From Dryomyza anilis (taxonomy: Eukaryota; Arthropoda; Insecta; Diptera; Dryomyzidae), in assembly GCA_951804985.1 (NCBI GenBank), contig OX638133.1:53410622-53474621 (forward strand): DNA of 64,000 bases, read 5' to 3'. Of the stretch, positions 10,115-47,640 are shown piece by piece. Position 1 is the first letter of the stretch; each line of letters opens with the position of its first letter. Both the position numbers and the translations under genes were made by a program. The notes beneath the pieces were generated by a model. The model saw only the letters and a program-made list of their open reading frames with translations. It was not told the DNA's origin and made no database searches.

Positions 10115-11038
10115 TCAGTTAATCCATGAATTATGTTCACTTCCAAAACCTAGCCACTTGACATACACCATATCCTTTTTTCTTTTTAAAACCTTTTCAA
10201 CTAGATACGTATTTGATGTTTCTGTTTTAAGTAATTCTTCTTCATAAAATCCACCTTTTATTATTTCTCCTTGATAATCAATTAATTGATAAGTAATTGG
10301 ATTTGTGATCTTTATATTATTTATCTTGAATACCTCATTGGACCAATTGGATTCATATGCTTTGTAGAAAGTACCTTTATATTTACTAATTCGAACATCA
10401 TCTCCAATTTTCAATTTACTCATCTTAAATGTTTTAATATGATTGTAAACTGTCTTTAAAAGTATTTGTTGATTAGATTTATTGACATTTTTTGGAGACA
10501 TTTTAATACTACGATGATATCTATTATTATATATATTGATATTTTTTGTAATCAAGTTCAGCCATTTATAATTCCCTTGAAGACTAAAATCTTTCCACAT
10601 TAAATTTTTAAAAGTTCTATTAAACCTTTCAATTATTGAAGCCTTCATATTAGAAAATGTATGATAATGGTTTATTTCAAAATTTTTCATTAATTTTTTA
10701 AAATTAGAATTGAAAAATTCTTTACCTTGATCAGATTGAATATTATTGGGAATTTTTTTCCTATTTTTTTCTAGAATATTTTGCATAGCTAAGGTTACAT
10801 CGATCCCACTTTTGGTTTTAACAGGTAAAGCATATGCGTATTTAGAAAAAACATCTATAACAGTCAGTAAATATTTATATCCTTTATTAATCTTTGCAAA
10901 AGGTATCATTTCTACAAGATCGATTTGCCAAGTATCTGAAATACCCTTTTGAATAAACCTACGCCGTTTAAAATTTCTTCTTGCTTGTCGATGCAATTCA
11001 TTTACAAGAACTTCTTTACTCATTGTGAGTTCAACCAA
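10115..11038 (-). CDS. Retroviral-type integrase with chromodomain (Polinton INT)
   Basis: The 307-residue DDE integrase inserts the element. The rve core holds Asp40 (DTWQIDLVEM), Asp103 (QSDQGKEFF) and Glu137 (KASIIERFNRTF), with 33 residues between the last two. A C-terminal chromodomain (about 277-306, YLVEKVL...VYVKWLGFGSEHNSWI) suggests targeting to modified chromatin. No HHCC zinc finger is visible at the N-terminus, so this start may be short; an internal ATG (residue 6) is also possible. It is divergently transcribed from the ATPase gene, 97 bases away. The frame is open with all catalytic residues present. Confidence 0.92.
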   Translation of the reverse strand: MVELTMSKEVLVNELHRQARRNFKRRRFIQKGISDTWQIDLVEMIPFAKINKGYKYLLTVIDVFSKYAYALPVKTKSGIDVTLAMQNILEKNRKKIPNNIQSDQGKEFFNSNFKKLMKNFEINHYHTFSNMKASIIERFNRTFKNLMWKDFSLQGNYKWLNLITKNINIYNNRYHRSIKMSPKNVNKSNQQILLKTVYNHIKTFKMSKLKIGDDVRISKYKGTFYKAYESNWSNEVFKINNIKITNPITYQLIDYQGEIIKGGFYEEELLKTETSNTYLVEKVLKRKKDMVYVKWLGFGSEHNSWIN

Positions 11039-11135
11039 TAGTGTAAATGATTGATTTTTTAAAATTTATATTTATATAAAAAAACTTGTTTACAATATTT
11101 ATATTTATTAGAAGTTCATCATTGAATAGAGAACC
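11039..11135. promoter_or_regulatory. Divergent intergenic region between INT and ATPase
   Basis: This 97-base AT-rich gap separates two divergent genes and should hold both promoters. A TTTATATAAAA-type AT box lies near 11070-11080. No further motif can be assigned by eye. Confidence 0.4.
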
Positions 11136-11804
11136 ATGTTTCATCAATTTGTGTATCCATTTACAATGTTAGTTTGTGGACCATCAGGTTGTGGCAAATC
11201 AACATTTATTATAAATCTTATTAACAATAAACATTTAATTAGTTCTCCTATTACAAAAGTAATTTGGTGTTATGCTGAAAAAAACTCTTTACCGGAACTT
11301 GATAATGTCAATTTTATTGAAGGCATTCCAGATGACTTTGAGAATTCAGCTAATGAATATACATTAATAATTTTAGATGATTTAATGTTAGACTCATTTA
11401 ACAAAAAAGTTTGTGAACTATTTACTAAAGGTTCGCATCACCGCAATTTATCAGTTGTTTTAGTAACTCAAAATATTTTTCATAAGGGGACATATACAAG
11501 AGATATATCATTGAATTCAAAATATATAGTTATGTTTAAAAATCCTAGAGATAAACTACAATTTCAATGCTTGGCAAGACAAATTTATCCTGAAAATTAT
11601 AAAGAATTAGTTAGAGTATATAACACTTGTACTGAGAGTGCTCATGGTTATTTACTAATAGATCTTACACAACAAGCACATAACGCATTAAGATTCAGAT
11701 CTAACATTTTCAATAAAGAATATTGTTACTGCTTTGTTTCACTGCAAAATGACCTGCAAACTGAAACGATTGAAGGAGAACAAATATATTCTATATGTTC
11801 TTAA
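11136..11804 (+). CDS. FtsK/HerA-type genome-packaging ATPase (Polinton ATPase)
   Basis: The 222-residue P-loop ATPase pumps DNA into capsids in related viruses. Walker A is GPSGCGKST (15-23), Walker B is TLIILDDLM (76-84), and the sensor-like segment VVLVTQN is at 107-113. Length and motif spacing fit the Polinton ATPase. It is the first gene of a plus-strand block of three, and its 3' end overlaps the next ORF in another frame. The frame is intact. Confidence 0.92.
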   Translation: MFHQFVYPFTMLVCGPSGCGKSTFIINLINNKHLISSPITKVIWCYAEKNSLPELDNVNFIEGIPDDFENSANEYTLIILDDLMLDSFNKKVCELFTKGSHHRNLSVVLVTQNIFHKGTYTRDISLNSKYIVMFKNPRDKLQFQCLARQIYPENYKELVRVYNTCTESAHGYLLIDLTQQAHNALRFRSNIFNKEYCYCFVSLQNDLQTETIEGEQIYSICS

Positions 11805-12090
11805 AAATGCTAAACCTAAATTGCGAAATGCAATTCTAAAAAACGCGGATGATAATCTTATAAAAGCTATTAATGAAATTGCATTTAATGTTTTACATAA
11901 AAATCATAATGTAAAGAAAAACGATTTAGTAAAGTTAAAATCATATAAAAATGTCATTAGAAAACTTTGCTGCTCAAAAACTGTTTTACGATCGAAGAGA
12001 AAACATCTAATCCAAAGAGGAGGATTTATACCAATTTTGATTTCTTCTGTTTTAAGCGGTGTTATAGGAAAAATTTTAGAAAATGTCTAA
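11734..12090 (+). CDS. Conserved small basic Polinton protein downstream of ATPase
   Basis: The ORF has up to 118 residues; a start at 11749 is equally plausible. It is helical and Lys-rich (VLKNAKPKLRNAILKNADDN), ends in a basic cluster (RSKRKHLIQRGGFIP) and a hydrophobic tail (ILISSVLSGVIGKIL). An RGGF-type step followed by a hydrophobic tail is common in the small Polinton protein found next to the ATPase and may be a site for the viral-type protease; that is inference. It overlaps the ATPase ORF by up to 71 bases and the next ORF by 8 bases. Confidence 0.7.
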   Translation: MFHCKMTCKLKRLKENKYILYVLKNAKPKLRNAILKNADDNLIKAINEIAFNVLHKNHNVKKNDLVKLKSYKNVIRKLCCSKTVLRSKRKHLIQRGGFIPILISSVLSGVIGKILENV

Positions 12091-12718
12091 TATTTTATCC
12101 AAGCTTATATTATTAAACCCTTCTACATATGAACGCTATTCTAACGATATGTCAGATTCAAATTTTTTAAAACGAAAACTTCTTCCAATATATGCCTCTC
12201 ATACACTTAAAGATATAAATAAATGGTATGGAATAAAACAGGAACTCGCAAAATATTTGATTACCAAACAAGAAATAAATATTAAGAAAGAGAATAAATC
12301 GGTTAAATCGTATAAATCATTAAGGGATAAAGATACTCAAACAAAATGGATATTTAAAAACGATAATGAAACTCAAACAAAAGATATTGGAAAAAAAGAT
12401 TTTGCTTCGCAGGCTGACTTTAATGCTAATGAACATATATTTAGCAATATTAACGAAGATGAAGAAAATTCTATGGATGTGGATACAACAATTAATAAAA
12501 TAAACCATTCCTCTGCAAGTTCTGCAGCTAAACGTTTAAAAAACTTTTCAAATCATGGATCACCTAAAGTACGGATTTTGTCAAGTGATGGAAGTAAAAT
12601 TACACCGAAAACTAAGCAAACTCTATTACCATATCAATACTCACCTCGCTTAACTCGTCAAAAAAGTAAAACATTACAATATGATAATGATGATGTTAAT
12701 TGGTATAATATTAAATAA
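12083..12718 (+). CDS. Polinton protein of unknown function, low complexity
   Basis: The 211-residue protein starts with ILSKLILLNPSTYERY, an N-terminus of the kind seen in several Polinton proteins encoded at this place. The rest is rich in Lys, Asn, Ser and Thr, with a repeated DTQTK/ETQTK motif (about 84 and 97), an acidic stretch near 125-133 and a basic C-terminal third. It looks largely disordered. The ORF overlaps the previous gene by 8 bases and converges on the polymerase gene. I do not assign a function. Confidence 0.6.
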   Translation: MSNILSKLILLNPSTYERYSNDMSDSNFLKRKLLPIYASHTLKDINKWYGIKQELAKYLITKQEINIKKENKSVKSYKSLRDKDTQTKWIFKNDNETQTKDIGKKDFASQADFNANEHIFSNINEDEENSMDVDTTINKINHSSASSAAKRLKNFSNHGSPKVRILSSDGSKITPKTKQTLLPYQYSPRLTRQKSKTLQYDNDDVNWYNIK

Positions 12719-12827
12719 ACAAAACATTTTTAAATATATAAAAATCGAATTTTTATTTTATTATTAATTTAATACATTATAAATTTATATAATATAAATC
12801 TAATAATTAAAATAATATAATTTATAT

Positions 12828-15800
12828 CTATATATCTATATTCATAAAAATATCTAAATCATTATTTAAAGCTTTAATATAATCAATTTTGTAATGTCCC
12901 CAAGCAAGTGTGTTTATACCATCATCTAGTATATACCGTTTATCATCTATAAAATTAAGTGATAATTTATTTACACATTGTGTATATAAAATACGGGCTT
13001 TAGATCTTATTATATACATTTCTCTCATTATAACTTTCTTATTGTAAAGGCATGTTTTATAATCATGAATAGTAAATGTTTTACTAACTGATTTTTTAAC
13101 ACCCTTGGCTTTTGATGTTGGTATATCATTTTCAACAGTAAAAAAGTATGTTTTGGGTTTAAGACATATTATTTCTTTCATTATTTTGCTATTATTTTCG
13201 TCTTTCATCAAACCCACAACTTTACAATTATTTTGATGATAACCATATATATTAGGATACTCATAACTAGAAGTGTCAAAAATATAATTTGATGGATCAG
13301 TTTTTTCAACATCTTCATAAATGTCTTTATAGAAATCATTTGTTTTAATCTCAACTATAAGAGAATCTGTGTCCGTATAAGCTAATCTTACATTAGTATT
13401 AAATTTAGTTTTTAATTAATTATAATAGAAGTCGTACATTTTACATTTCGATAAATCTAATACACAAAATCCTGTATAAATAGGTTTATTTAACTTAACT
13501 TTAAGAACTTTTGATTCTATTACTATCATATTTTCATTAATATTCGTTCTACTATGGAATGCTGGATTTGCTATTATTGATCTGGCTCCTTTAACTTTAC
13601 CATTATTCTCCCAATTGCAACAAATGTTTACATTTCTTCTATTTTCAACATTTTCCATAGTTTTGCCATAAACTGAATTATTCATTAATTTATAAAAAAT
13701 TTTCTCAAACTCATTGGTAGCTTTAGACCTCATTAATGTATTCAGATCTATATACTTTTTAAGCCAACAACTTTGAGAAAACTCTAAAATTCTATATATT
13801 TTTTTTAAAATTAAACCATTTTTAATACATTCTTGAAGCATTTTATAATGTATTTTATACATATTCTTATTATTAAGATCTGCTATAAGTTTTTTAGAAT
13901 TAGAATTACAAGAAGGTGGTGTTTTATTTTCTGGACAAAACGGAAAATCATTATGTAAATTATGAATTGAAGAAAGATATTCTAAGTCTACTTCAAAAAT
14001 ATATCCTTTAGAAGAATGTTCATTAATAGATTTAAGTTTTTCAATAGTAAACTCTGTAATTTCATATGACTCTAAAAATCTAAATTCCTTAAAAGGTAAT
14101 GGCTGTGACATCGCATAACCATATAAATTATTTGCGTCATAATACATTAAATATGATGAACATTTAGATTTATCAAAGTTATGCATATATTTATTATTGG
14201 CTTTTACATGTCTAATCGAGCATTGTGTTAAACCTCCACGTATACCGTCTTGAATAAAAGTATACATTTCTATATCGGTAATTAGTTCGAGGTTAATTTT
14301 AGTCATCTTGAGCATAGCATCCCAAGATAATCCGGGAGCAGTGAAGTAATGACACGGATCAAGCTCATAAATTTTTAGACAAATTTTTCTAAAATTCTCA
14401 AAAACATCCGCAAGTAAGACAACATCTCACTTTAGGTATACTTCTAAATAATCTTTTAAAGATTTACAATTTAAAATGTTCCATACATTCAGAGCATAAG
14501 CATAATCATCTTCAGAACACTCTTCATTAATTAATCTATTAAAAAACTTATATTTAGCAGGTAATTGATTTTCTTTTAACCTATTAAAGCTATCTAAATT
14601 ATCATAAGGAAAAACACCTTTTCTATAAAATATCTTATACGAATTATTGTTAAAAACCTTTTTAGTTATATGGATTGACTCGTCATTTAGAGTTTTCACC
14701 AATTTCTCAAGGCTGCTAGGTAAAAATCTAAATGAATCTATAAATCTAAGTTGAAAACTATGATCTTTAGTTAAATTTATAGTTTTTGTTATAGATATAA
14801 ATACCTCTTTATTAAGAGGTATAATATCAATAGCTCCCTCTACTTCGTTTAAATTTTGTATAAATAAATGTAGATCATATTTGGATAAATTATGAGTTAT
14901 TACCGGAAAGAATTTAGTTCTTTTTGCTTTCAAATTACATTCTGTATGAGCAGATCCGAAATACTTTCCGGTAAAATGACAATGGTGCCTTACTTTTATA
15001 CTAATATTATTACTTAAATCACTTTTACGTATACAGCAGATTGTTGATTGATGGAACGCGTGCATTTCCTGGTCAGTTATCTTCATTGCCTTCATTGTGG
15101 AGTAAACGTTCCAATATATTTGCGTCGCTTTCGCAACTAAAGATTTTATCATAACTCTCGAACATTCAGGACCTATAAACGAAAGATTAAATATTATATA
15201 TATATCGTTTTTTATTTTTATTTTTTTATTATTGTTTTTTTCTTTTGTATTCACCTGTATAATTTTGTAGCTTATCGAAACGATCATCATATGACCCTTT
15301 CAAATACCAAGCAAATGCGCATGGTATGTGCTTCTGAATATTCGTTGTATACGTATTTTCTGGGTTATTTGTACAGCCAATAATCGGTTCCAGAATCGAT
15401 TCAAAATCCATATAAAAAGTATATCCAACTGGGATGGTTTTTTCATAGGCTTTAAATGCTAGTGTGGACTCATTTTCCTTGGGCAAATACGTAATTTTTT
15501 TTTTACATGATGATTTATGTGCCTCAAGAGACTTTATAGATGTAAATTGTAGAATACATCCATTACAAATATACATTTTGTGGGCTCTTTTTCGTCCCTG
15601 ACCGCTTATCAATTTACTTAGATCTTTTATCCAGACATAGTGAGTAATTTCTTCACTGTCACAAAATAGCAAATTGATATGTGTACTCTGTTCTTTTTCA
15701 GTGTGATAAATAGGTCCTAAAATTTCGCATTTTCCATCTGACTTTTCATTATACATGAAAATATTTATGCTAATGGAGTTGTTTAGCTCAAATATTTTTG

Positions 15801-16818
15801 TATTCTTTATAGAATGAGGGAAGTCTAATCCTCTAAATATCAAATTTATATCATTCACATAAATTTCCTCTGCTGTTATGTCGGAAATATTATATGAATT
15901 AATGCGATAGGGATCATTTATTTTTATTTTTGTATTAACTATTGCTGCAATAATAGCCCACTTAAAGCAGAAAATATCACTGTTTTGTATATTAATACAT
16001 GCCTTTCTTTTTTCTATGTATGCTGGCAATTTCTGATATGATAATCCATTTAAGGGGCTATATTCACTTATATTAAGCTCAATTTTATTGATTTTTATCA
16101 AAGCCCATCCACTATCCCGTTCTTGAAAGTTCTCCATTTTATTTATTAACAATTCTTCAATATTTAACATTACATCTTCAATATTATCTTTGGTTAATAT
16201 TGTTAGTGGTTTTGTTATATGTGAAAAAGAGCTTAGTTTAAATTCATCATCATCTTCGACAGAAGGTTTTGAAGGACGTATATAGTCAGCAGAGATCTCC
16301 GCATTCAATTTTAAAGATATTTTCTTATTTAATTCTCTTTCCAGTAAATTTTTAATTTTATTTCTTATTTGACCGAAATATTCATGTGGATTTATTAGAC
16401 TTTCATCATCATTAGGTAATATGTAATCACATATTTTATTTTTAAATGCTTTTCGTACCAATTTAAATCCATCTATATCTGAAATCTCTGATGCTCTCTT
16501 ATGCGCTGTTGATCTTAAATGGCCTCTCCATAGGGATTTGTGAACTGTAACATTACAGTTCTCACAGTAACGGCTCACCGATGATGATGTTGATGCGATT
16601 TCATATTCATTATTCAGCAAATCCTCATATTTTCCTTGTTTTGAAGGAATTTCCTCTTGAAAATGTTGACAGGAATGATGTTTTAAAGTATTTGGTCTGC
16701 TAAAAGATTTACTACACTTTAAGCAGCTAAACTTTGTATTTTCATGTATTGTCGATACATGTCTCTTTAAATTATAGTTTTTCGCGAAGGACTTTGAACA
16801 CAATGCACAGATAAACAT
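12828..16818 (-). pseudogene. Protein-primed family B DNA polymerase, one intron, two in-frame stops
   Basis: About 1,300 codons in two exons (16818-15255 and 15172-12828). The N-terminus has two C2H2 fingers (CALCSKSF..., CLKCSKSF...) and a third Cys/His pair (YCENCNVTVHK). Exo motifs are YMDFES (exon 1) and HNLSKYDLH (exon 2). Polymerase motifs are DANNLYGYAM (A, ~14110-14140), NNSVYGK (B, ~13655-13680) and YTDTDS (C, ~13362-13380). An in-frame TGA at about 14429-14427 follows EVYLK, and an in-frame TAA at about 13418-13416 follows YDFYYN; no frameshift is needed elsewhere. The stops make a full-length enzyme unlikely. An ATG 39 bases upstream is possible. Confidence 0.9.
15173..15254 (-). 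other. Intron in PolB
   Basis: Minus-strand donor GTGAAT follows ...TATACAG, and acceptor CTTTCGTTTATAG precedes GTCCTGAATG. Removing these 82 bases joins the two long frames at a Gly codon split by the intron. The same intron, with a variable (TA)n run, is present in all partial copies at 35520, 38380, 41200 and 44010. Confidence 0.85.
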
Positions 16819-17149
16819 TTTTTTAATTTTTATAAAAGTTATCGAAGTTGCAAACAAACGAACACTAACTTAAATTATTATTTTGAATATTAAGAAACTT
16901 CAACTTCAAATTTTACAGGAATTATTGAACATAAAAAAAGTGCATGTTGCAGTAAAGATGTGTTACTGCAGTTTTAATTTACTGACTTCCGGTGTATTTC
17001 ACTACTTATACATTAAATTTTGCTGAATTCAAATTTTTAAGTTCAGTTTAATATATATCATATTACATGCTTTGATATATAAAGGTGTGGAATGGATATA
17101 ATAATAAATTTTACTCGTTTTCATACTTTTAATATATCAACATTAAAAA

Positions 17150-17554
17150 ATGGAGTGTGAATTTTCCCCGCATTTAAAATTCTCGACTAGAAACAACCTT
17201 AAGCGGCATATCCTGCGAAAACATAATTTTTCATATAAAAAGGCAAAAACTTATACTTGTAAGTAAATAACTAAATATATTTTTTAAAATTATTTTATAT
17301 TAATAATAAAAATTTTATTAACAGTAAATCCTCAAATTGAAATACTAGAAGTCGTAACACTCCCGCCAGTAAATTTGATAGATGTTGGAATTAGGGAAGG
17401 ATTATTAGATGATGGACTAGACCATCTATTTCTTAACTTAGACGATCCGAGGATGTTAAATGCGGATCATCATTATTGTAATTTAATGGACGATGATGAT
17501 GATAATATTTTATTAAACGCTCTACTGAGTTTTGAGCAAATAATGCAAATATAA
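17150..17554 (+). CDS. Small spliced zinc-finger-like acidic protein of Polinton
   Basis: Two exons (17150-17258 and 17325-17554) encode 112 residues; the intron has donor GTAAGT and acceptor TTAACAG. Exon 1 is one C2H2-like finger (MECEFSPHLKF...LKRHILRKH) in which the second Cys position is Ser. Exon 2 is acidic, with DDGLDHLFLNLDDP and an Asp run, ending in LLSFEQIMQI. A finger plus acidic tail could suit a DNA-binding regulator, but this is inference. It lies between PolB and the right-terminal gene. A paralogue with the same splice sites is at 45880-46335. Confidence 0.65.
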
Positions 17555-17691
17555 GTTTTATAAATTATTTGTTATATTGTTTCAAATCGTTTTAAAATAA
17601 ATAAATAAATAAAACAATATGTATATATTTAAATATTTTATTTAAAATGAATATTTTTAAAAGTAAGTATATTGATACGTTTTTTTTATTT

Positions 17692-18067
17692 TTATTCATA
17701 ACGTAAATCGAATAGAGCCATCCCCATTACTTCTGATTGTCGTCCTCGAAAAATAATAGACCACTTCTTCTCATTTATATTATATAAATATGGATCATCG
17801 GTTTCAACTTTTCTAGAAATTCTTGCTGGTAGATAAAACCATCTGTTGTCTGTTAGATGTACAATTAATTTTGTTCCATTAATTGTGTTTTTCCATTCAA
17901 ATTTAGAAATCCTGAATTCCTGATCAACGGGCAAGTCATCTACTCTAATGTATGTAGAGAGGTTTCCTTTTGCTAAACTAATAATTTCAGCGAAATCCTT
18001 TAAATAATATAAATACATAAATTAATAAATACAAACAAAATTAAAAAAAAAAAAACAATCTTACCAT
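17692..18067 (-). CDS. Polinton right-terminal gene, spliced, start codon at TIR edge
   Basis: The continuous frame 18018-17692 encodes 108 residues (...FAEIISLAKGNLSTYIRVDDLP...), unknown family. A better model uses ATG 18067-18065, then a 67-base intron (donor GTAAGA at 18064, acceptor ATTTAAAG), then the frame from 17997. This gives about 102 residues starting MDFAEIIS. The ATG is the counterpart of the left-gene ATG at 6967. The body has many aromatic and basic residues (KFEWKNT, NRWFYLPARIS, KKWSIIFRGRQS). The promoter is probably in the TIR. A frameshifted paralogue is at 46460-46800. Confidence 0.65.
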
Positions 18068-19323
18068 ATTTTGTTGTTCCTATCAAATTGTAATGCAGAC
18101 GATGAATAAATTTAATTCAAATTTCGATCCATTTATATATAATGGATATCTCTTTAAAATGAGTTAAAAAGTGAATTCCATTAGTATAAATATACTCAAT
18201 TAAAATTTTAAAGAGAGTAAATTAAATAAATCTCAAGACAAAAAACTCTATAAAAAATATACATGTTCTAACATGTTCAATCTTTTAAACATATAGTATA
18301 GAAAATGATTTAAAAAATGATCCCAATGGAACCTTATGGCTCCATTCATTCATATAACCAAATTAAACGACCATGACTTTGTAGAATAAAATCCAGTACA
18401 ATAACCCTTATAGTAAAATTGGCCTTGAATTAAATATATGTCAATGCATTAATACAGAAGTGTCTTAACCTATTTACAACAAAAAAAATTAACCACAAAA
18501 AAAATAAGCATCTAATAATAATATTCATTCATATATCGAAGTTTTAAATTACAATCACCGTTCCTCAACAAAGTTTCAAATTGAACCCTTTGCTCCTCAA
18601 CTCTCTTGATGATCATGCAAAAATAAAACAAACAAGTATAACTATAGTATACATTATAACTACGTTAACTGAAATCTAATTGCAACTATAATATTTTACA
18701 ACAACAACATGAATACGTTTGTAAATATTCTCATTCACAAAAAATGCTTACTCCGATATAATTATCCCAACAACAACATTTACTCTTTACGGCTGCATGC
18801 CTTCATAACATGCATATAATATATATGTATGTATCAACATTAACAAATTATGTTAAAAAGTCATCCCACTGGCTCCATGCCATTATAAAATATATAGTAT
18901 ACATATAATATACATCTGTTAAAAATACTTCCCATGAAAACAATAACAAATATTCTGTTAAAATATGATCCCCATTGAAAAAACAATAACAACTATACTG
19001 TTAAAATATGATCTCCAATGAACTACAGTACCAACAACTCTGTTAAAAAATGATCCCTATTGAACTATACCAACAACAACTATGTTAAAAAATGATCCCT
19101 ATTGAATTACACTAACAGCAACTATGTTAAAAAATGATCCCTATTGAATTACACTAACAACAACTATGTTAAAAAATGATCCCTATTGAATTACACTAAC
19201 AACAACTATGTTAAAAAATGATCCCTATTGAAAACAATATCAACATCTCTGTTAAAATTCATTTACACTAACAACAATGTGCTCCATGGAGCCCAGTGGG
19301 GCCAGAACCGGCGAATCCATACT
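18064..19323 (-). repeat. Polinton right terminal inverted repeat
   Basis: This is the complement of 5722-6970, nearly identical, including the 42-bp minisatellite (about 18970-19260). The outer end reads ...CGGCGAATCCATACT. Confidence 0.9.
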
Positions 19324-19543
19324 ACTGGCAGGTTCGCATATTCATTGATCATGATTTCTTAATTCACAAAAATAAAAAAAAAACGAGTATTAGAAACAAA
19401 GAAAAAAATCTAATCTTTTAAACGTAACCATAACCAATCCCAAAAAGAAAATAAAAACAACACTTGCTTACGTTTCGTCACCTAATTCAATATCGTAGAC
19501 TTGAAAAATTTAAATCATTTTATTAATTTTAATGATAATCCAA

Positions 19544-33535: not shown

Positions 33536-34920
33536 CCCTTCCCCAATTAATCCAGCTAATTTTCGAAAGTGTTCCACTTTGCACGCTGCTAGAGGTTTTG
33601 TCATCATATCTGCTAGCATGTGTTCAGTAGGACAATACAAGCATTGAATATTTTGATTGGTGATGTGATCCTTGACGAAATGCAGTTTTGTATCAATGTG
33701 CTTCGTTCTAATTACTTAACTTTTTCTCTTTGATAAGGCGTAGACAACTTTGATTATCTTCAAAGATCGTTATAGGTTTTGCTTGCTTGATCATCATATC
33801 ATTTAGTAATTCTCGAATCCATATAGCTTATTTGCATCCTTCAGATAAAGAAACAAAGAAACACACGTTTGCTTCTTGCATGACCAACTGATTGAACCGC
33901 CATTGATCTGAAACAGATAACCTGAATTAGATTTCCTATCTAGTCTGTCCTCTGCCCTCTGCCCGCGGCGTATCCTATCAAAGTATTGGGTTCGATGTTA
34001 ATGCTATTTAAGTGCAAAAATTCATCTGCTGTGCCCTTTAGGTATTTCAGTACTCTCTTTAATTTGGTCCAATTTTCATGAGTGGGACAGATTACTTTTT
34101 CGAGCCAAAATTGACACGCTTGCCGCAATATCAGGTCTTGAATTTACACTGATGTATAACAGCGACTAAATTAGACGGTGATAATTTGTATTGCTCAGCA
34201 GTGCTTCGGACTCCGATTTTCCATATCCTGGATCGATTGGATACTTCGAAATTTTTGCATTATCCAAACCAAAATCCTTCAATAAATTTTCAATATATTT
34301 CTTTTGGCGGATGCAGAAATTAGAATGCTTGTCCTTCATAACTTCAAGACCCAGGTAATGGTGAATGTCAAATTATTGATGTCAAAATTGTTCGATAATA
34401 GTTCCTCCACTGCTTTAATATTGGATTTACTTTGGCTTGCCACAAAAATATCGTCAATGTAGACCAACACATATATCAGCCCATCCTCGTTGATATATTT
34501 TGTGTATAGGCAAGGATCAGCATTGCTTTGATGAAATCCGCCTTGGATTAATACCTTATGGAGGGTTTAATTCCAGACGTTTTGTTTTAGACCGTACAGA
34601 CTTTTCTTTATCCTGTAAACAAACTTACTCTCTCTCCTTCCTCAAATCCTGGTGGCTGTTTCATATAATCGACTTCTTCAAGATAACCATTTAGGAACGC
34701 AGACTTAACATCTATGTGCACAACTAACATTTTCTTGATGCCAGCTACTGACAATAAGGTACGGAAAGTGGTTTGTCGAACGACAGGAACTAAACCCTCG
34801 AGCAACTAAGCGAGCCTTAAATTTCTGAACCTTACCATGGACATCGTGCTTCAACTTAAACGTCCACTTGCAACTAATCATGTTTGCATTTGTTGGCGCA
34901 ACGACTAGCTCCCATGTATA
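33379..34920 (-). pseudogene. Second copia-type element, 3' part, minus strand
   Basis: Minus strand from 34920: an RT N-terminal segment (WELVVAPTNAN, KFKARLVARG), then HIDVKSAFLNGYLEEVDYM (about 34680-34720), then the RNase H region (KRVLKYLKGTADEFLHL near 34060). A purine tract and an LTR starting TGTTAGAGAAC (33535 downward to about 33379) follow. Many frames are broken. The 5' half is lost at the joint with the Polinton remnant. Confidence 0.75.
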
Positions 34921-34935
34921 AAGCTATCTAAATAA

Positions 34936-36093
34936 TCATAAAACACCTTTTCTATAAAATATCTTATACGAATTATTGTTAAAAACCTTTTTAGTTATAT
35001 GGATTGACTCGTCATTTAGAGTTTTCACCAATTTCTCAAGGCTGCTAGGTAAAAATCTAAATGAATCTATAAATCTAAGTTCAAAACTATGATCTTTAGT
35101 TAAATTTATAGTTTTTGTTATAGATATAAATACCTCTTTATTAAGAGGTATAATATCAATAGCTCCCTCTACTTCGTTTAAATTTTTTATAAATAAATGT
35201 AGATCATATTTGGATAAATGAGTTATTACCGGAAAGAATTTAGTTCTTTTTGCTTTCAAATTACATTCTGTATGAGCAGATTCTAAATATTTTCCGGTAA
35301 AATGACAATGGTGTCGTACTTTTATACTAATATTATTACTTAAATTACTTTTACATATACAGCAGATTGTTGATTGATGGAACTCCTGCATTTCCTGGTC
35401 AGTTATCTTCATTGACTTCATCGTGGAGTAAACGTTCCAATATATTTGCGTGGCTTTCGCAACTAAAGATTTTATCATAACTCTTGAATATTCAGGACCT
35501 ATAAACGAAAGATTAAATGTTATATATATATATATATATATCGTTTTTTATTTTTATTATTATTATTTTTTTCTTTTGTATTCACCTGTATAATTTTGTA
35601 GCTTATCGAAACGATCATTATATGACCCTTTCAAATACCAAGCAAATGCGCACGGTATATGCTTCTGGGTTATTTGTACAGCCATTAATCGGTTTCAGAA
35701 TCGATTCAAAATCCATTTAAAAAGTATATCCAACTGGGATGGTTTTTTCATAGGCTTTAAATGTTAGTGTAGACTCATTTTCCTTGGGCAAATACGTAAT
35801 TTTTTTTTACATGATGATTTGTGTGCCTCAAGAGACTTTATAGATGTAAATTGTAGAATACATCCATTACAAATATACATTTTGTGGGCTCTTTTTCGTC
35901 CCTGACCGCTTATCAATTTACTCAGATCTTTTATCCAGACATAGTGAGTATTTTCTTAACTGTCACAAAATAGCAAATTGATATGTGTACTCTGTTCCTT
36001 TTCTGTGTGATAAATAGGCCCCAAAATTTCGCATTTTCCATGGAGTTGTTTAGCTCAAATATTTTTGTATTCTTTATGGAATGAGGGAAGTCT
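34936..36093 (-). pseudogene. Partial PolB unit 1 (exon 2 start, intron, exon 1 end)
   Basis: Exon 2 part 35478-34936 includes the HCHFTGKY and SKYDLH regions. The intron is around 35520-35590, followed by the exon 1 C-terminal region up to the joint at 36093. Frames are broken by deletions, for example 36 bases missing near 36040 compared with the full copy. Confidence 0.85.
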
Positions 36094-38955
36094 ATAATCA
36101 ATTTTGTAATGTCCCCAAGCAACTGTGTTTATACCATCATCTAGTATATACGGTTTATCATCTATAAAATTAAGTGATAATTTATTTACACATTGTGTAT
36201 ATAAAATATGGGCTTTAGATCTTATTATATACATTATTCTCATTATAACTTTCTTTTTGAAAAGGCATGTTTTATAATCATGAATAGTAAATGTTTTACC
36301 AACTGATTTTTTAACACCCTTGGCTTTTGATGTTGGTATATCATTTTCAACAGTAAAAAAAGTATGTTTTGGGTTTAAGACATATTATTTCTTTCATTAT
36401 TTTGCCATTATTTTCGTCTTTCATCAAACCCACAACATTACAATTATTTTGATGATAACCATATATATTAGGATACTCATAACTAGAAGTGTCAAAAATA
36501 TAATTTGTTGGATTAGTTTTTTCAACATCTTTATAAATGTTTTTATAGAAATCATTTGTTTTAATCTCAACTATAAGAGAATCTGTGTCCGTATAAGCTA
36601 ATCTTACATTAGTATTAAATTTTGTTTTTAAGTAATTATAATAGAAGTCGTACATTTTCAATTTCGATAAATCTAATACACAAAATCCTGTATAAATGGG
36701 TTTATTTAACTTAACTTTAAGAACTTTTGATTCTATTACTATCATATTTTCATTAATATTAGTTCTGCTATGGAATGCTGGATTTGCTTTATTTATCTGG
36801 CTCCTTTAACTTTACCATTATTCTCCCAATTGCAACAAATGTTTACATTTCTTCTATTTTCAACATTTTCCATAGTTTTGCCATAAACTGAATTATTCAT
36901 TAATTTATAAAATTTTTTCTCAAACTCATTGGTAGCTTTAGACCTCATTAATGTATTCAGATCTATATACTTTTTAAGCCAACAACTTTGAGAAAACTCT
37001 AAAATTCTATATACTTTTTTTAAAATTAAACCATTTTTAATACATTCTTGAAGCATTTTATAATGTATTTTATACCTATTCTTATTATTAAGATCTGCTA
37101 TAAGTTTTTTAGAATTAGAATTACAAGAAGGTGGTGTTTTATTTTCTGGACAAAACGGAAAATCATTATGTTATGAATTGAAGAAGGATATTCTAAGTCT
37201 ACTTCAAAAATATATCCTTTAGAAGAATGTTCATTAAAAGATTTAAGTTTTTCAATAGTAAACTCTGTAATTTCATATGGCTCTAAAAATCTAAATTCCT
37301 TAAAAGGTAATGGCTATGACATCGCATAACCATATAAATTATTTGCGTCATAATACATTTAATATGATGAACATTTAGATTTATCAAAGTTATGCATATA
37401 TTTATTATTGGCTCGAGCATTGTGTTAAACCTCCACGTATACCGTCTTGAATAAAAGTATACATTTCTATATCGGTAATTAGTTCGAGGTTAATTTTAGT
37501 CATCTTGAGCATAGCATCCCAAGATAATCCGGGAGCAGTGAAGTAATGACACGGATCAAGCTCATAAATTTTTAGACAAATTTTTATAAAATTCTCAAAA
37601 ACATCCGCAAGTAAGACAACATTACACTATAGGTATACTTCTAAATAATCTTAAAGATTTACAATTTAAAATGATACATTCAGAGCATAAGCATAGTCAT
37701 CTTCAAAACACTCTTCATTTATTAATCTATTAAAAAACTTATCTTTAGCAGGTAATTGATTTTCTTTTAACCTATTAAAGCTATCTAAATAATCATAAGG
37801 AAAAACACCTTTTCTATAAAATATCTTATACGAATTATTGTTAAAAACCTTTTTAGTTATATGGATTGACTCGTCATTTAGAGTTTTCACCAATTTCTCA
37901 AGGCTGCTAGGTAAAAATCTAAATGAATCTATAAATCTAAGTTCAAAACTATGATCTTTAGTTAAATTTATAGTTTTTGTTATAGATATAAATACCTCTT
38001 TATTAAGAGGTATAATATCAATAGCTCCCTCTACTTCGTTTAATTTTTTTATAAATAAATGTAGATCATATTTGGATAAATGAGTTATTACCGGAAAGAA
38101 TTTAGTTCTTTTTGCTTTCAAATTACATTCTGTATGAGCAGATTCTAAATATTTTCCGGTAAAATGACAATGGTGTCGTACTTTTATACTAATATTATTA
38201 CTTAAATTACTTTTACATATACAGCAGATTGTTGATTGATGGAACTCCTGCATTTCCTGGTCAGTTATCTTCATTGACTTCATCGTGGAGTAAACGTTCC
38301 AATATATTTGCGTGGCTTTCGCAACTAAAGATTTTATCATAACTCTTGAATATTCAGGACCTATAAACGAAAGATTAAATGTTATATATATATATATATA
38401 TATCGTTTTTTATTTTTATTATTATTATTTTTTTCTTTTGTATTCACCTGTATAATTTTGTAGCTTATCGAAACGATCATTATATGACCCTTTCAAATAC
38501 CAAGCAAATGCGCACGGTATATGCTTCTGGGTTATTTGTACAGCCATTAATCGGTTTCAGAATCGATTCAAAATCCATTTAAAAAGTATATCCAACTGGG
38601 ATGGTTTTTTCATAGGCTTTAAATGTTAGTGTAGACTCATTTTCCTTGGGCAAATACGTAATTTTTTTTTACATGATGATTTGTGTGCCTCAAGAGACTT
38701 TATAGATGTAAATTGTAGAATACATCCATTACAAATATACATTTTGTGGGCTCTTTTTCGTCCCTGACCGCTTATCAATTTACTCAGATCTTTTATCCAG
38801 ACATAGTGAGTATTTTCTTAACTGTCACAAAATAGCAAATTGATATGTGTACTCTGTTCCTTTTCTGTGTGATAAATAGGCCCCAAAATTTCGCATTTTC
38901 CATGGAGTTGTTTAGCTCAAATATTTTTGTATTCTTTATGGAATGAGGGAAGTCT
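36094..38955 (-). pseudogene. PolB repeat unit 2
   Basis: Contains, on the minus strand, exon 1 end, intron, exon 2 with Exo, motif A (region near 37340, broken), motif B (NNSVYGK ~36880), YTDTDS (~36590) and the C-terminal region. Several small deletions and stops make it non-coding as a whole. Identical over long stretches to units 1 and 3. Confidence 0.85.
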
Positions 38956-41766
38956 ATAATCAATTTTGTAATGTCCCCAAGCAACTGTGTTTATACCATC
39001 ATCTAGTATATACGGTTTATCATCTATAAAATTAAGTGATAATTTATTTACACATTGTGTATATAAAATATGGGCTTTAGATCTTATTATATACATTATT
39101 CTCATTATAACTTTCTTTTTGAAAAGGCATGTTTTATAATCATGAATAGTAAATGTTTTACCAACTGATTTTTTAACACCCTTGGCTTTTGATGTTGGTA
39201 TATCATTTTCAACAGTAAAAAAAGTATGTTTTGGGTTTAAGACATATTATTTCTTTCATTATTTTGCCATTATTTTCGTCTTTCATCAAACCCACAACAT
39301 TACAATTATTTTGATGATAACCATATATATTAGGATACTCATAACTAGAAGTGTCAAAAATATAATTTGTTGGATTAGTTTTTTCAACATCTTTATAAAT
39401 GTTTTTATAGAAATCATTTGTTTTAATCTCAACTATAAGAGAATCTGTGTCCGTATAAGCTAATCTTACATTAGTATTAAATTTTGTTTTTAAGTAATTA
39501 TAATAGAAGTCGTACATTTTCAATTTCGATAAATCTAATACACAAAATCCTGTATAAATGGGTTTATTTAACTTAACTTTAAGAACTTTTGATTCTATTA
39601 CTATCATATTTTCATTAATATTAGTTCTGCTATGGAATGCTGGATTTGCTTTATTTATCTGGCTCCTTTAACTTTACCATTATTCTCCCAATTGCAACAA
39701 ATGTTTACATTTCTTCTATTTTCAACATTTTCCATAGTTTTGCCATAAACTGAATTATTCATTAATTTATAAAATTTTTTCTCAAACTCATTGGTAGCTT
39801 TAGACCTCATTAATGTATTCAGATCTATATACTTTTTAAGCCAACAACTTTGAGAAAACTCTAAAATTCTATATACTTTTTTTAAAATTAAACCATTTTT
39901 AATACATTCTTGAAGCATTTTATAATGTATTTTATACCTATTCTTATTATTAAGATCTGCTATAAGTTTTTTAGAATTAGAATTACAAGAAGGTGGTGTT
40001 TTATTTTCTGGACAAAACGGAAAATCATTATGTTATGAATTGAAGAAGGATATTCTAAGTCTACTTCAAAAATATATCCTTTAGAAGAATGTTCATTAAA
40101 AGATTTAAGTTTTTCAATAGTAAACTCTGTAATTTCATATGGCTCTAAAAATCTAAATTCCTTAAAAGGTAATGGCTATGACATCGCATAACCATATAAA
40201 TTATTTGCGTCATAATACATTTAATATGATGAACATTTAGATTTATCAAAGTTATGCATATATTTATTATTGGCTCGAGCATTGTGTTAAACCTCCACGT
40301 ATACCGTCTTGAATAAAAGTATACATTTCTATATCGGTAATTAGTTCGAGGTTAATTTTAGTCATCTTGAGCATAGCATCCCAAGATAATCCGGGAGCAG
40401 TGAAGTAATGACACGGATCAAGCTCATAAATTTTTAGACAAATTTTTATAAAATTCTCAAAAACATCCGCAAGTAAGACAACATTACACTATAGGTATAC
40501 TTCTAAATAATCTTAAAGATTTACAATTTAAAATGATACATTCAGAGCATAAGCATAGTCATCTTCAAAACACTCTTCATTTATTAATCTATTAAAAAAC
40601 TTATCTTTAGCAGGTAATTGATTTTCTTTTAACCTATTAAAGCTATCTAAATAATCATAAGGAAAAACACCTTTTCTATAATATATCTTATACGAATTAT
40701 TGTTAAAAACCTTTTTAGTTATATGGATTGACTCGTCATTTAGAGTTTTCACCAATTTCTCAAGGCTGCTAGGTAAAAATCTAAATGAATCTATAAATCT
40801 AAGTTCAAAACTATGATCTTTAGTTAAATTTATAGTTTTTGTTATAGATATAAATACCTCTTTATTAAGAGGTATAATATCAATAGCTCCCTCTACTTCG
40901 TTTAATTTTTTTATAAATAAATGTAGATCATATTTGGATAAATTATGAGTTATTACCGGAAAGAATTTAGTTCTTTTTGCTTTCAAATTACATTCTGTAT
41001 GAGCAGATCCTAAATACTTTCCGGTAAAATGACAATGGTGTCGTACTTTTATACTAATATTATTACTTAAATTACTTTTACATATAAAGCAGATTGTTGA
41101 TTGATGGAACTCCTGCATTTCCTGGTCAGTTATCTTCATTGCCTTCATCGTGGAGTAAACGTTCCAATATATTCAGGACCTATAAACGAAAGATTATATA
41201 TTATATATATATATCGTTTTTTATTTTTATTATTATTATTTTTTTCTTTTGTATTCACCTGTATAATTTTGTAGCTTATCGAAACGATCATTATATGACC
41301 CTTTCAAATACCAAGCAAATGCGCACGGTATATGCTTCTGGGTTATTTGTACAGCCATTAATCGGTTTCAGAATCGATTCAAAATCCATTTAAAAAGTAT
41401 ATCCAACTGGGATGGTTTTTTCATAGGCTTTAAATGTTAGTGTAGACTCATTTTCCTTGGGCAAATACGTAATTTTTTTTTACATGATGATTTGTGTGCC
41501 TCAAGAGACTTTATAGATGTAAATTGTAGAATACATCCATTACAAATATACATTTTGTGGGCTCTTTTTCGTCCCTGACCGCTTATCAATTTACTCAGAT
41601 CTTTTATCCAGACATAGTGAGTATTTTCTTAACTGTCACAAAATAGCAAATTGATATGTGTACTCTGTTCCTTTTCTGTGTGATAAATAGGCCCCAAAAT
41701 TTCGCATTTTCCATGGAGTTGTTTAGCTCAAATATTTTTGTATTCTTTATGGAATGAGGGAAGTCT
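38956..41766 (-). pseudogene. PolB repeat unit 3
   Basis: Same layout as unit 2 with the same stops and frameshifts. It differs by a 51-bp deletion near 41170 (exon 2 start) and a 3-base insertion near 40942. Confidence 0.85.
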
Positions 41767-44700
41767 ATAATCAATTTTGTAATGTCCCCAAGCAACTGTG
41801 TTTATACCATCATCTAGTATATACGGTTTATCATCTATAAAATTAAGTGATAATTTATTTACACATTGTGTATATAAAATATGGGCTTTAGATCTTATTA
41901 TATACATTATTCTCATTATAACTTTCTTTTTGAAAAGGCATGTTTTATAATCATGAATAGTAAATGTTTTACCAACTGATTTTTTAACACCCTTGGCTTT
42001 TGATGTTGGTATATCATTTTCAACAGTAAAAAAAGTATGTTTTGGGTTTAAGACATATTATTTCTTTCATTATTTTGCCATTATTTTCGTCTTTCATCAA
42101 ACCCACAACATTACAATTATTTTGATGATAACCATATATATTAGGATACTCATAACTAGAAGTGTCAAAAATATAATTTGTTGGATTAGTTTTTTCAACA
42201 TCTTTATAAATGTTTTTATAGAAATCATTTGTTTTAATCTCAACTATAAGAGAATCTGTGTCCGTATAAGCTAATCTTACATTAGTATTAAATTTTGTTT
42301 TTAAGTAATTATAATAGAAGTCGTACATTTTCAATTTCGATAAATCTAATACACAAAATCCTGTATAAATGGGTTTATTTAACTTAACTTTAAGAACTTT
42401 TGATTCTATTACTATCATATTTTCATTAATATTAGTTCTGCTATGGAATGCTGGATTTGCTTTATTTATCTGGCTCCTTTAACTTTACCATTATTCTCCC
42501 AATTGCAACAAATGTTTACATTTCTTCTATTTTCAACATTTTCCATAGTTTTGCCATAAACTGAATTATTCATTAATTTATAAAATTTTTTCTCAAACTC
42601 ATTGGTAGCTTTAGACCTCATTAATGTATTCAGATCTATATACTTTTTAAGCCAACAACTTTGAGAAAACTCTAAAATTCTATATACTTTTTTTAAAATT
42701 AAACCATTTTTAATACATTCTTGAAGCATTTTATAATGTATTTTATACCTATTCTTATTATTAAGATCTGCTATAAGTTTTTTAGAATTAGAATTACAAG
42801 AAGGTGGTGTTTTATTTTCTGGACAAAACGGAAAATCATTATGTTATGAATTGAAGAAGGATATTCTAAGTCTACTTCAAAAATATATCCTTTAGAAGAA
42901 TGTTCATTAAAAGATTTAAGTTTTTCAATAGTAAACTCTGTAATTTCATATGGCTCTAAAAATCTAAATTCCTTAAAAGGTAATGGCTATGACATCGCAT
43001 AACCATATAAATTATTTGCGTCATAATACATTTAATATGATGAACATTTAGATTTATCAAAGTTATGCATATATTTATTATTGGCTCGAGCATTGTGTTA
43101 AACCTCCACGTATACCGTCTTGAATAAAAGTATACATTTCTATATCGGTAATTAGTTCGAGGTTAATTTTAGTCATCTTGAGCATAGCATCCCAAGATAA
43201 TCCGGGAGCAGTGAAGTAATGACACGGATCAAGCTCATAAATTTTTAGACAAATTTTTATAAAATTCTCAAAAACATCCGCAAGTAAGACAACATTACAC
43301 TATAGGTATACTTCTAAATAATCTTAAAGATTTACAATTTAAAATGATACATTCAGAGCATAAGCATAGTCATCTTCAAAACACTCTTCATTTATTAATC
43401 TATTAAAAAACTTATCTTTAGCAGGTAATTGATTTTCTTTTAACCTATTAAAGCTATCTAAATAATCATAAGGAAAAACACCTTTTCTATAAAATATCTT
43501 ATACGAATTATTGTTAAAAACCTTTTTAGTTATATGGATTGACTCGTCATTTAGAGTTTTCACCAATTTCTCAAGGCTGCTAGGTAAAAATCTAAATGAA
43601 TCTATAAATCTAAGTTCAAAACTATGATCTTTAGTTAAATTTATAGTTTTTGTTATAGATATAAATACCTCTTTATTAAGAGGTATAATATCAATAGCTC
43701 CCTCTACTTCGTTTAATTTTTTTATAAATAAATGTAGATCATATTTGGATAAATTATGAGTTATTACCGGAAAGAATTTAGTTCTTTTTGCTTTCAAATT
43801 ACATTCTGTATGAGCAGATCCTAAATACTTTCCGGTAAAATGACAATGGTGTCGTACTTTTATACTAATATTATTACTTAAATTACTTTTACATATACAG
43901 CAGATTGTTGATTGATGGAACTCCTGCATTTCCTGGTCAGTTATCTTCATTGCCTTCATCGTGGAGTAAACGTTCCAATATATTCAGGACCTATAAACGA
44001 AAGATTAAATATTATATATATATATCGTTTTTTATTTTTATTATTATTATTTTTAATTATTATTTTTTTCTTTTGTATTCACCTGTATAATTTTGTAGCT
44101 TTTCGAAACGATCATTTCCTATAGACCCTTTCAAATACCAAGCAAATGCGCACGGTATATGCTTCTGGGTTATTTGTACAGCCATTAATCGGTTCCAGAA
44201 TCGATTCAAAATCCATATAAAAAGTATATCCAACTGGGATGGTTTTTTCATAGGCTTTAAATGTTAGTGTAGACTCATTTTCCTTGGGCAAATACGTAAT
44301 TTTTTTTTACATGATGATTTGTGTGCATCAAGAGACTTTATAGATGTAAATTGTAGAATACATCCATTACAAATATAAATTTTGTGGGCTCTTTTTGTCC
44401 CTGACCGCTTATCAATTTACTCAGATCTTTTATCCAGACATAGTGAGTATTTTCTTCACTGTCACAAAATAGCAAATTGATATGTGTACTCTGTTCTTTT
44501 TCTGTGTGATAAATAGCATTTTCGCATTTTCCATCTGACTTTTCATTATACATGAAAATATTGATGCTAATGGAGTTGTTAAGCTCAAATATTTTTGTAT
44601 TCTTTATGGAATGAGGAAAGTCTAATCCTCTAAATATCAAATTTATACCATTCACATAAATTTCCTCTGCTATTATATCGGAAATATTATATGAATTAAT

Positions 44701-45608
44701 GCGATAGGGATCATTTATTTTTATTTTTGTATTAACTATTGCAGCAATAATAGCCCACTTAAAGCAGAAAATATCTCTGTTTTGTATATTAATACATGTC
44801 TTTCTTTTTTCTATGTATGCTGGCAATTTCTGATATGATAATCCATTTAAGGGGCTATATTCACTTATATTAAGCTCAATTTTATTGATTCTTATCAAAG
44901 CCCATCCACTATCCCGTTCTGGAAAGTTCTCCATTTTATTTATTAACAATTCTTCAATATTTAACATTACATCTTCAATATTATCTTTGGTTAATATTGT
45001 TAGTGGTTTTGTTATATGTGAAAAAGTGCTTAGTTTTAATTCATCATCAACTTCGACAGAAGGTTTTGAAGGACGTATATAGTCAGCAGAGATCTCCGCA
45101 TTCAATTTTAAAGATATTTTCTTATTTAATTCTCTTTCCAGTAAATTTTTAATTTTATTTCTTATTTGACCGAAATATTCGTGTGGATTAATTAGACTTT
45201 CATCATCATTAGGTAATATGTAATCACATATTTTATTTTTAAATGCTTTTCGTACCAATTTAAATCCATTTATATCTGAAATCTCTGATGCTCTCTTATG
45301 CGCTGTAGATCTTAAATGGCCTCTCCAGAGGGATTTGTGAACTGTAACATTACAGTTCTCATAGTAATGGCTCACCGATGATGATGTTGATGCGATTTCA
45401 TATTCAGCAAATTCTTATATTTTCCTTGTTTTGAAGGAATTTCCTCTTGAAAATGTTGACAGGAATAATGTTTTAAAGTATTTGCTCTGCTAAAAAATTT
45501 ACTACACTTTAAGCAGCCAAACTTTGTATTTTCATGTATTGTCGATACATGTCTCTTTAAATTATAGTTTTTCGCGAAGGACTTTGAACACAACGCACAA
45601 ATAAACAT
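41767..45608 (-). pseudogene. PolB repeat unit 4 running into the N-terminal exon
   Basis: The last unit (to 44623) continues without a joint into the N-terminal half of exon 1. Frame 45375-44338 covers the central N-terminal region, and 45608-45372 covers the two C2H2 fingers (CALCSKSF, CLKCSKFF), separated by a small deletion near 45405. The exon 1 part lacks the 36-bp deletion seen in units 1-3 but has its own breaks. Confidence 0.85.
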
Positions 45609-45879
45609 TTTTTAATTTTTAAAGAAGTTCTCGAAGTTGCAGACAAACGAACACTAACTTAAATTATTATTTTGAATATTAAGAAACTTCAACTTCAAAT
45701 TTTACAGGAATTATTGAACATAAAAAAAGTGCAGTAAAGATGTGTTACTGCAGTTTTAATTTACTGACTTCCGGTGTATTTTACTACTTATACATTAAAT
45801 TTTGCTGAATTCAAATTTTTATATTCAGTTTAATATATCATATTACATGCTTTGATATATAAAGGTGTTCTATACAATG

Positions 45880-46335
45880 GATATAATAATAAATTTTACT
45901 CGTTTATATACTTTTAATATATCAACATTAAAAAATGGAGTAGGATTTTCCCCGCATTTAAAATTCTCGACTAGAAACAACCTTAAGCGGCATATCCTGC
46001 GAAAACATAATTTTTCGTATAAAAAGGCAAAAACTTATACTTGTAAGTAAATAACTAAATATATTTTTTAAAATTATATTATATTAATAATAAAAATTTT
46101 ATTAACAGTAAATCCTTAAATTGAAATACTAAAAGTCGTAACACTCCCGCCAGTAAATTTGATAGATGTTGGAATTAGGGAAGGTTTATTAGATGATGGA
46201 CTAGATCATCTATTTCTTAACTTAGACGATCCGAGAATGTTAAATGGGGATCATCATTATTGTAATTTAATGGACGATGATGATAATATTTTATTAAACG
46301 CTCTACTGAGTTTTGAGCAGATAATGCAAATATAA
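45880..46335 (+). pseudogene. Paralogue of the spliced zinc-finger-like Polinton gene
   Basis: Homologous to 17094-17554 with the same GTAAGT donor and TTAACAG acceptor. The ATG used in the full copy is followed here by an early TAG, but an upstream in-frame ATG (45880) reads through to the finger (GFSPHLKF...LKRHILRKH), without the first Cys. The second exon retains most of the acidic region but has a stop early (CCTTAA). Confidence 0.6.
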
Positions 46336-46459
46336 GTTTTATTAATTATTTGTTATATTGTTTCAAATCGTTTTAAAAATAAATAAAACAATATGTATAT
46401 ATTTAAATATTTTATTTAAAATGAATATTTTTAAAAGTAAGTATATTGATATGTTTTTT

Positions 46460-46825
46460 TTATTCATAAAGTAAATCGAATAGAGCCATCCCCATTACTT
46501 CTGATTGTCGTCCTCGAAAAATAATAGACCACTTCTTCTCATTTATAATATATAAATATGGATCATCGGTTTCAACTTTTCTAGAAATTCTTGCTGGTAG
46601 ATAAAACCATCTGTTGTCTGTTAGATGTACAATTAATTTTGTTCCATTAATTGTGTTTTTCATTCAAATTTAGAAATCCTGAATTCCTGATCAATGGGCA
46701 AGTCATCTACTCTAATGTATGTAGAGAGGTTTCCTTTTGCTAAACTAATAATTTCAGCGAAATCCTTTAAATAATATAAATACATAAATTAATAAATACA
46801 AACAAAATTAAAAAAAAAAACAATT
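46460..46825 (-). pseudogene. Paralogue of the Polinton right-terminal gene, frameshifted
   Basis: Homologous to 17692-18067. A one-base deletion in the run near 46663 breaks the frame in the middle. The first ATG and intron position near 46820 are present (donor GTAAAA). Confidence 0.7.
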
Positions 46826-47640
46826 TTACCATATTTGTTTTCTGTTCCTATCAAATTGTAATGTAGACGATGAATAAATTTAATTCAAATTTCGATCCAT
46901 TTATATATAATGGATATCTCTTTAAAATGAGTTAAAAAGTGAATTCCATTCGTATAAATATACTCAATTAAAATTTTAAAGAGAGTAAATAAAATAAATC
47001 TCAAAACAAAAAACTCTATAAAAATATACATGTTCTAACATGCTCAATCTTTTACACTTATAGTATAGAAAATGATCCCAATGGAACCTTATGGCTCCAT
47101 TCATTCATATAACCAAATTAAACGACCATGACTTTGTAGAATAAAATCCAGTACAATAACCCTTATAGTAAAATTGGCCTTGAATTAAATATATGTCAAT
47201 GCATTAATGCATTAATACAGAAGTCTCTTAACCTGTTAACAACAAAAAAATTATCCACAAAAAAAAATAAGCATCTAATAATAATATTCATTCATATATC
47301 GAAGTTTAAAATTACAATCATCGTTCCTCAACAAAGTTTCAAATTAAACCCTTTGCTCCTCAACTCTCTTGATGATCAAACAAACAAGTATAACTATAAT
47401 ATACATTATAACTACGTTAACTGAAATCTAATTGCAACTATAATATTTTACAACAACATTAATACGTTTGTAAATATTCTCATTCACAAAAAATGCTTAC
47501 TCCGATATAATTATATAATTATATATAATTATCCCAACAACAACATTTACTCTTTACGGCTGCATGCCTTCATAACATGCATATAATATATATGTATGTA
47601 TCAACATTAACAAATTATGTTAAAAAGTTATCCCACTGGC
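46826..47640 (-). repeat. Truncated TIR of second Polinton
   Basis: Matches 18064-18860 of the full element with small indels; broken off at ~47640 before the minisatellite. Confidence 0.85.

What the first reader, a model, noticed from the sequence alone, without database searches (positions are those of the whole stretch)
34921..44623. Head-to-tail amplification of a 2.8-kb polymerase segment inside a dead Polinton
A segment from the PolB C-terminal region to the middle of exon 1 is present once partially and three times fully, always joined at the same point. Long stretches are identical base for base although the frames are already broken, so the amplification postdates inactivation, or gene conversion has homogenised it. 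Tandem amplification of an internal Polinton gene fragment is not a usual Polinton property.
Basis: seen in the sequence. Interest (0 to 1): 0.75.

Follow-up and report, generated by a model that had tools for sequence, protein, structure and literature searches.

The report
Tandem repeats in a dead fly Polinton
In a fly genome, a broken piece of an old virus-like transposon has been copied head-to-tail, most likely by ordinary recombination errors; the copies record the order of events, but this kind of decay is already known for other transposons.

Summary
A 2.8-kb piece of a Polinton DNA-polymerase gene is present as one partial unit (34919-36092) and three full units (36093-38954, 38955-41765, 41766-44622), with three identical joints. 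A second Polinton with both terminal repeats (5720-19325) in the same window served as outgroup. The array sits in the right half of a dead element: its left half is missing, its right terminal repeat is truncated, and its left edge abuts a decayed copia fragment.

The units carry an ordered record. All share frame-breaking indels relative to the outgroup, two of them in a stretch where two unit lineages differ by 2.5%, so inactivation came before the first duplication. The middle unit is a chimera, like the right unit on its left and like the left unit on its right. The first 2 kb differ by 0-1 bases between full units, against about 2% between the first and third over the last 0.8 kb. One illegitimate duplication, divergence, then later unequal exchange or conversion fits this; one rolling-circle burst does not.

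This is an ordinary transposon-derived tandem array. Polinton-related satellites are reported in locust and oyster. The own-genome search did not complete, so copies elsewhere and support in reads are untested.

The parts
34919..36092 (-). U0: left-truncated first unit (about A 14585-15825), lineage X
36093..38954 (-). U1: full unit of 2862 bases (about A 12878-15825); X type in its last 0.9 kb
38955..41765 (-). U2: full unit of 2811 bases; chimera, U3-like up to about 41201 and U1-like from about 41231
41766..44622 (-). U3: full unit, lineage Y in its last part, running without a joint into the rest of element B
36073..36112 (.). First joint (A 15825 to A 12878, about 2 bp shared by the two donors as judged on A); the same 40 bases recur around 38954/38955 and 41765/41766
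41201..41231 (.). Switch interval of the chimeric unit U2, in the AT-rich stretch that corresponds to the apparent PolB intron of A
44623..47640 (-). Rest of element B: 5' part of PolB and a truncated right terminal inverted repeat (about A 15827-18873)
34121..34914 (-). Decayed copia reverse-transcriptase fragment abutting the left edge of the array
5720..19325 (.). Element A: Polinton with both 1.26-kb terminal inverted repeats, used as outgroup; its PolB also carries two in-frame stops

Best explanation
A Polinton (element B) in a fly genome lost PolB function through several frame-breaking indels. An illegitimate recombination event with about 2 bp of shared sequence at the joint then duplicated 2.8 kb of the dead gene in tandem. 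The two units diverged by about 2.5% where they can still be told apart. After that, at least two homology-driven steps (unequal exchange, or conversion with gain of a unit) between misaligned units raised the number to four, made U2 a chimera of the two older lineages, and left the first 2 kb nearly identical in U1, U2 and U3. The left half of the element, with part of the left-most unit, was lost or displaced by a rearrangement joining it to a copia remnant. Shown: repeat structure, joints, shared lesions, chimeric pattern of U2, uneven identity. Inferred: order and kind of recombination, and relative time. The array probably has no function of its own.
For: Identical joints in all three places with about 2 bp microhomology. 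Eight frame-shifting indels relative to A: six shared by the three full units, two by all four units. Of 27 differences between U1 and U3, U2 follows U3 at the first 7 and U1 at the next 20, a single switch; the last of the 27 lies beyond the unit's end, which leaves 7 and 19. U1 and U3 differ at 0 of 1987 ungapped sites in the first 2 kb and at 18 of 814 in the rest, Fisher P 2e-10. Ungapped substitution columns fit one grouping of units per segment, apart from 3 changes private to U2. In 34000-48500 the left half of A has no match longer than 43 columns except its terminal repeat, and the window self-comparison, listed from 150 columns up, shows none elsewhere.
Against: By substitutions alone, U2 is not significantly closer to U3 in the middle part (2 of 260) than in the last part (14 of 557), Fisher P 0.11; the chimera rests on the order of diagnostic differences, indels included, and neighbouring ones may be single events. 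U0 differs from U1 at only 1 of 299 sites in its remnant of the first part, so that part may have been homogenised too; the exact series of exchanges is not unique. Substitutions set apart by A are uneven: X 4 and Y 0 in the middle part, X 4 and Y 10 in the last. Counts are small, but conversion from another copy is possible. The rest of the genome was never searched: the genome search gave no answer in 11 tries.
Confidence: 0.8

Rival explanations
1. Rolling-circle or extrachromosomal-circle burst: a 2.8-kb circle was copied into a concatemer and inserted in one event.
For: Head-to-tail order and one joint repeated exactly.
Against: One burst predicts evenly near-identical units. Instead U1 and U3 differ at 18 of 814 sites in one part and 0 of 1987 in another, and U3 runs without a joint into the rest of the element.
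Confidence: 0.05
2. Assembly artefact: fewer or more units exist than the assembly shows, through false duplication or collapse of haplotypes.
For: Very long identical stretches are hard to assemble; no reads were available.
Against: Unit-specific variants are ordered: 3 substitutions private to U2, a 46-base gap shared by U2 and U3, a 37-base gap shared by U0, U1 and U2. At least one joint must be real. The exact number could still be wrong.
Confidence: 0.1
3. The units come from two different Polinton copies brought together by ectopic recombination, so the 2.5% is divergence between dispersed copies rather than time since a local duplication.
For: X-Y divergence in the last part (14 of 557) is close to the divergence of the rest of B from A (79 of 2983). 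A second Polinton lies about 15.6 kb away in the same orientation.
Against: X and Y share the 26- and 1-base losses relative to A, so A is not the donor; an unseen third copy would be needed. All four units also agree against A at 12 columns of the last part, though some of these may have changed in A.
Confidence: 0.15

Closest known systems
Maize CRM1TR / CRM4TR, tandem repeats derived from centromeric retrotransposons (PMC3648361; abstract and Discussion read)
   Same: Monomer is a fragment of a transposable element; a novel joint proposed to come from illegitimate recombination; growth and homogenisation by conversion, with unequal exchange not excluded; recombinant monomers.
   Different: LTR/UTR of a retrotransposon in or near the centromere; here coding sequence of a Polinton, three full units and one partial.
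Locust LmiSat34-299, said to show homology with a Polinton coding sequence (PMC4935994; three passages read)
   Same: Tandem repeat related to Polinton coding sequence in an insect.
   Different: The 299-base unit length is read from the name; its sequence was not compared with this one.
Oyster CgiSat52, 1656-base satellite labelled DNA/Polinton (PMC8268682; one table passage read)
   Same: Long-unit tandem repeat related to Polinton sequence.
   Different: A mollusc satellite; which part of a Polinton it resembles was not seen in the passage.
Drosophila virilis Helitron-2-derived 154-bp repeats (PMC12910113; passages read)
   Same: Tandem repeats from the inside of a DNA transposon in a fly.
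   Different: Abundant, transcribed and processed into piRNAs according to the passages; nothing of the kind was tested here.

Membership tests
Polinton/Maverick-derived sequence | Type B DNA polymerase of the Polinton kind | tested here: met
   phrog_1907 at E 1e-6 and 2e-4 for two pieces of A; homologues of which 39 of 120 listed carry PF03175. Pfam gave no polymerase domain for the pieces. B aligns to A at 90.5-94.0% in the four PolB-bearing gapped alignments.
Polinton/Maverick-derived sequence | Integrase, packaging-type ATPase and adenovirus-like protease | tested here: not met
   Found in element A, the protease only just (21.4 bits, cut-off 21.3). The half that carries them has no match in element B, so B is only a fragment.
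Polinton/Maverick-derived sequence | Long terminal inverted repeats | tested here: not met
   A has 1.26-kb repeats, 8 substitutions in 1246 sites. B keeps only a truncated right repeat.
Polinton/Maverick-derived sequence | 6-bp target-site duplication | tested here: inconclusive
   None evident by eye at the ends of A; B is truncated on both sides. The 6-bp length is recalled.
Transposon-derived tandem array | Head-to-tail units with a common joint, derived from inside a transposon | tested here: met
Transposon-derived tandem array | Homogenisation between units (concerted evolution) | tested here: met
   0 of 1987 against 18 of 814 differences between U1 and U3; single-switch pattern of U2
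Satellite DNA | Long arrays of many copies, often at several loci | tested here: not met
   Three full units and one partial in this window. The rest of the genome could not be searched (11 calls unanswered), so this holds for the window only.

The most novel reading that the evidence does not exclude
The locus is an early stage of a Polinton-derived satellite in flies: copy number varies between individuals, the same joint occurs elsewhere in the genome, and the array feeds a small-RNA silencing source, as reported for a Helitron-derived repeat in Drosophila virilis.
Probability: 0.12. Interest if true: 0.45.

Novelty: new member of a known kind. Interest (0 to 1): 0.2.

Why it matters
It is a small, well-resolved example of how a dead virus-like transposon becomes tandem repeats. 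A joint, a chimeric unit and an outgroup element in one window allow the order of inactivation, duplication and homogenisation to be read. It does not change what is known about Polintons.

Tried and rejected
Rejected: one rolling-circle burst as the only event (uneven divergence); a protein-level function for the repeated polymerase (shared frame-shifting indels); element A as donor of the second lineage.

Led nowhere: the search for related loci in viral contigs with a PolB piece and with the integrase alignment found no relative, so other Polintons could not be surveyed for similar arrays. tblastn of the zinc-finger frame 15229-16869 against phages found nothing. Searching solved structures with a PolB piece found nothing. 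A tRNA-like Rfam match at 25096-25167 was not confirmed by ARAGORN. A crayfish repeatome paper (PMC7859515, two passages) names Polinton only as a repeat class, and a review of transposon-derived satellites (PMC12628747) does not hold the words Polinton or Maverick in its main text.

Statements about print: paper searches for Polinton with tandem duplication (8 listed of 8), Maverick/Polinton with tandem repeat and satellite (20 of 124), Polinton with unequal crossing over (3 of 3), DNA transposon with internal, tandem repeats, satellite DNA and Polinton (10 of 10), Polinton with satellite DNA (10 of 23) and Maverick with tandem duplication (10 of 10) listed no paper whose title or abstract start describes a tandem array of Polinton PolB. 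I saw the listings and the passages or sections named in this report, no whole paper.

Full report
What is there. The window is most likely fly DNA. A 592-codon open frame at 55592-57370, an apparently single-exon LIM-domain-binding (Chip/LDB) gene, is 77% identical to Anastrepha obliqua and 82% to two unnamed proteins; the first eight or so named matches are Diptera, with other insects further down. Two Polintons lie in the same orientation. Element A (5720-19325) has 1.26-kb terminal inverted repeats that differ at 8 of 1246 sites. It carries a retrovirus-type integrase, an ATPase, a borderline adenovirus-type protease match and a type B DNA polymerase. Its integrase is 61% and 60% identical to those of two Drosophila-associated adintoviruses and up to 71% to unnamed proteins. 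Element B (34919-47640) is only a right half. It aligns to A 12878-18873, ends in a truncated terminal repeat, and apart from that repeat and short hits of 41-43 columns has no match to the left half of A.

The array. Inside B the stretch A 12878-15825, from near the end of PolB to about two thirds into its first long open frame, stands head-to-tail. U0 is 34919-36092 (partial, from about A 14585), U1 36093-38954, U2 38955-41765 and U3 41766-44622, the last running on into the rest of B. The joint is the same to the base in all three places: a 40-base joint sequence occurs three times on the + strand and not on the other. The two sides share about 2 bp at the joint, judged against A rather than the exact donor. 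The left edge abuts a decayed copia reverse-transcriptase fragment on the minus strand, 34121-34914, 27-29% identical in protein to the copia element at 27129-31424.

Polymerase identity. Of the PolB pieces of A, 13416-14426 and 14427-15299 match phrog_1907, a DNA polymerase family. Searched against the large protein set, 13416-14426 finds 7915 matches, the listed named ones from arthropods. Pfam gave no polymerase domain for these pieces even at E 10, nor for two frames of a B unit.

Order of events. Relative to A, U1, U2 and U3 share indels of +1, -1, -4, -14, -2 and -4 bases in the first part of the unit, and all four units share losses of 26 and 1 bases in the last part. None is a multiple of three, though some neighbours partly offset each other. 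A's first long frame is open, so the last two are taken as lesions of B. A itself carries two in-frame stops further on, at 14429 and 13418, which the units do not share. The last part still separates two lineages, X (U0, U1, U2) and Y (U3): 14 substitutions in 557 sites and 5 gap events. X and Y nevertheless share the 26- and 1-base losses, so the gene was broken before they parted. X has two stops in A's first frame that U3 lacks.

The chimera. Of 27 differences between U1 and U3, U2 follows U3 at the first 7 and U1 at the other 20. The last of the 27 is the end of the unit and should be left out, giving 7 and 19. Neighbouring differences may be single events, so the probability printed there (2e-6) is only a guide. 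By substitutions alone the contrast of U2 with U3 between the two parts (2 of 260, 14 of 557) is not significant, P 0.11. The switch lies at about 41201-41231, in the AT-rich stretch that in A looks like a short intron with GT...AG ends. Compared with A, ungapped substitution columns fall as follows. First part: 40 where U1, U2 and U3 differ from A (mostly where U0 is absent), 3 where all four do, 1 private to U2. Middle part: 9 all four, 4 U0 and U1, 2 private to U2. Last part: 12 all four, 10 private to U3, 4 U0, U1 and U2. No column in a segment contradicts that segment's grouping. Columns where all units differ from A may have changed in A.

Uneven identity. U1 and U3 are identical at 1987 of 1987 sites in the first part but differ at 18 of 814 in the rest (Fisher P 2e-10). 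Two successive unequal exchanges in a two-unit array would give this pattern: one with its crossover in the intron-like stretch, making U2, and one near the end of the first part, making U1. Gene conversion would also serve. U0 differs from U1 at 1 of 299 sites in its short remnant of the first part. That is fewer than the rest would suggest, and it keeps the exact path open.

What it works like. It behaves as a transposon-derived tandem array in the making: an illegitimate joint, then homology-driven growth and homogenisation. The closest described case read here is CRM1TR/CRM4TR of maize, and a review lists such mechanisms (PMC12628747, passages and part 1 of 2 of one section). Polinton-related satellites are mentioned for locust and oyster. 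It is not a satellite by copy number in this window. Nothing tested here suggests a function.

Limits. The own-genome search did not answer in 11 tries, so copies elsewhere, the fate of B's left half and any genome-wide repeat were not examined. Reads were not available, so the copy number rests on the assembly. Times are relative only.

Noticed in passing
5720-19325: Polinton with both terminal repeats and 42-bp tandem repeats inside them; its PolB has two in-frame stops and no target-site duplication was evident by eye at its ends.
   Followed up: partly
27129-31424: Copia-type retrotransposon with gag, integrase and reverse transcriptase in separate stop-to-stop frames and short flanking direct repeats (75 bases at 98.7%, 81 columns at 85%).
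   Followed up: partly
22137-22487: A 178-bp unit in two tandem copies at 99% identity.
   Followed up: no
32472-33380: 302-codon open frame in a GC-rich patch, with a 238-codon frame opposite it; no Pfam match on either strand up to E 1.
   Followed up: partly
55592-57370: LIM-domain-binding (Chip/LDB) gene, apparently single-exon, with LIM_bind and LID domains.
   Followed up: partly
50577-51290: Open frame with a reverse-transcriptase domain, RVT_1, so probably a further retroelement remnant.
   Followed up: no
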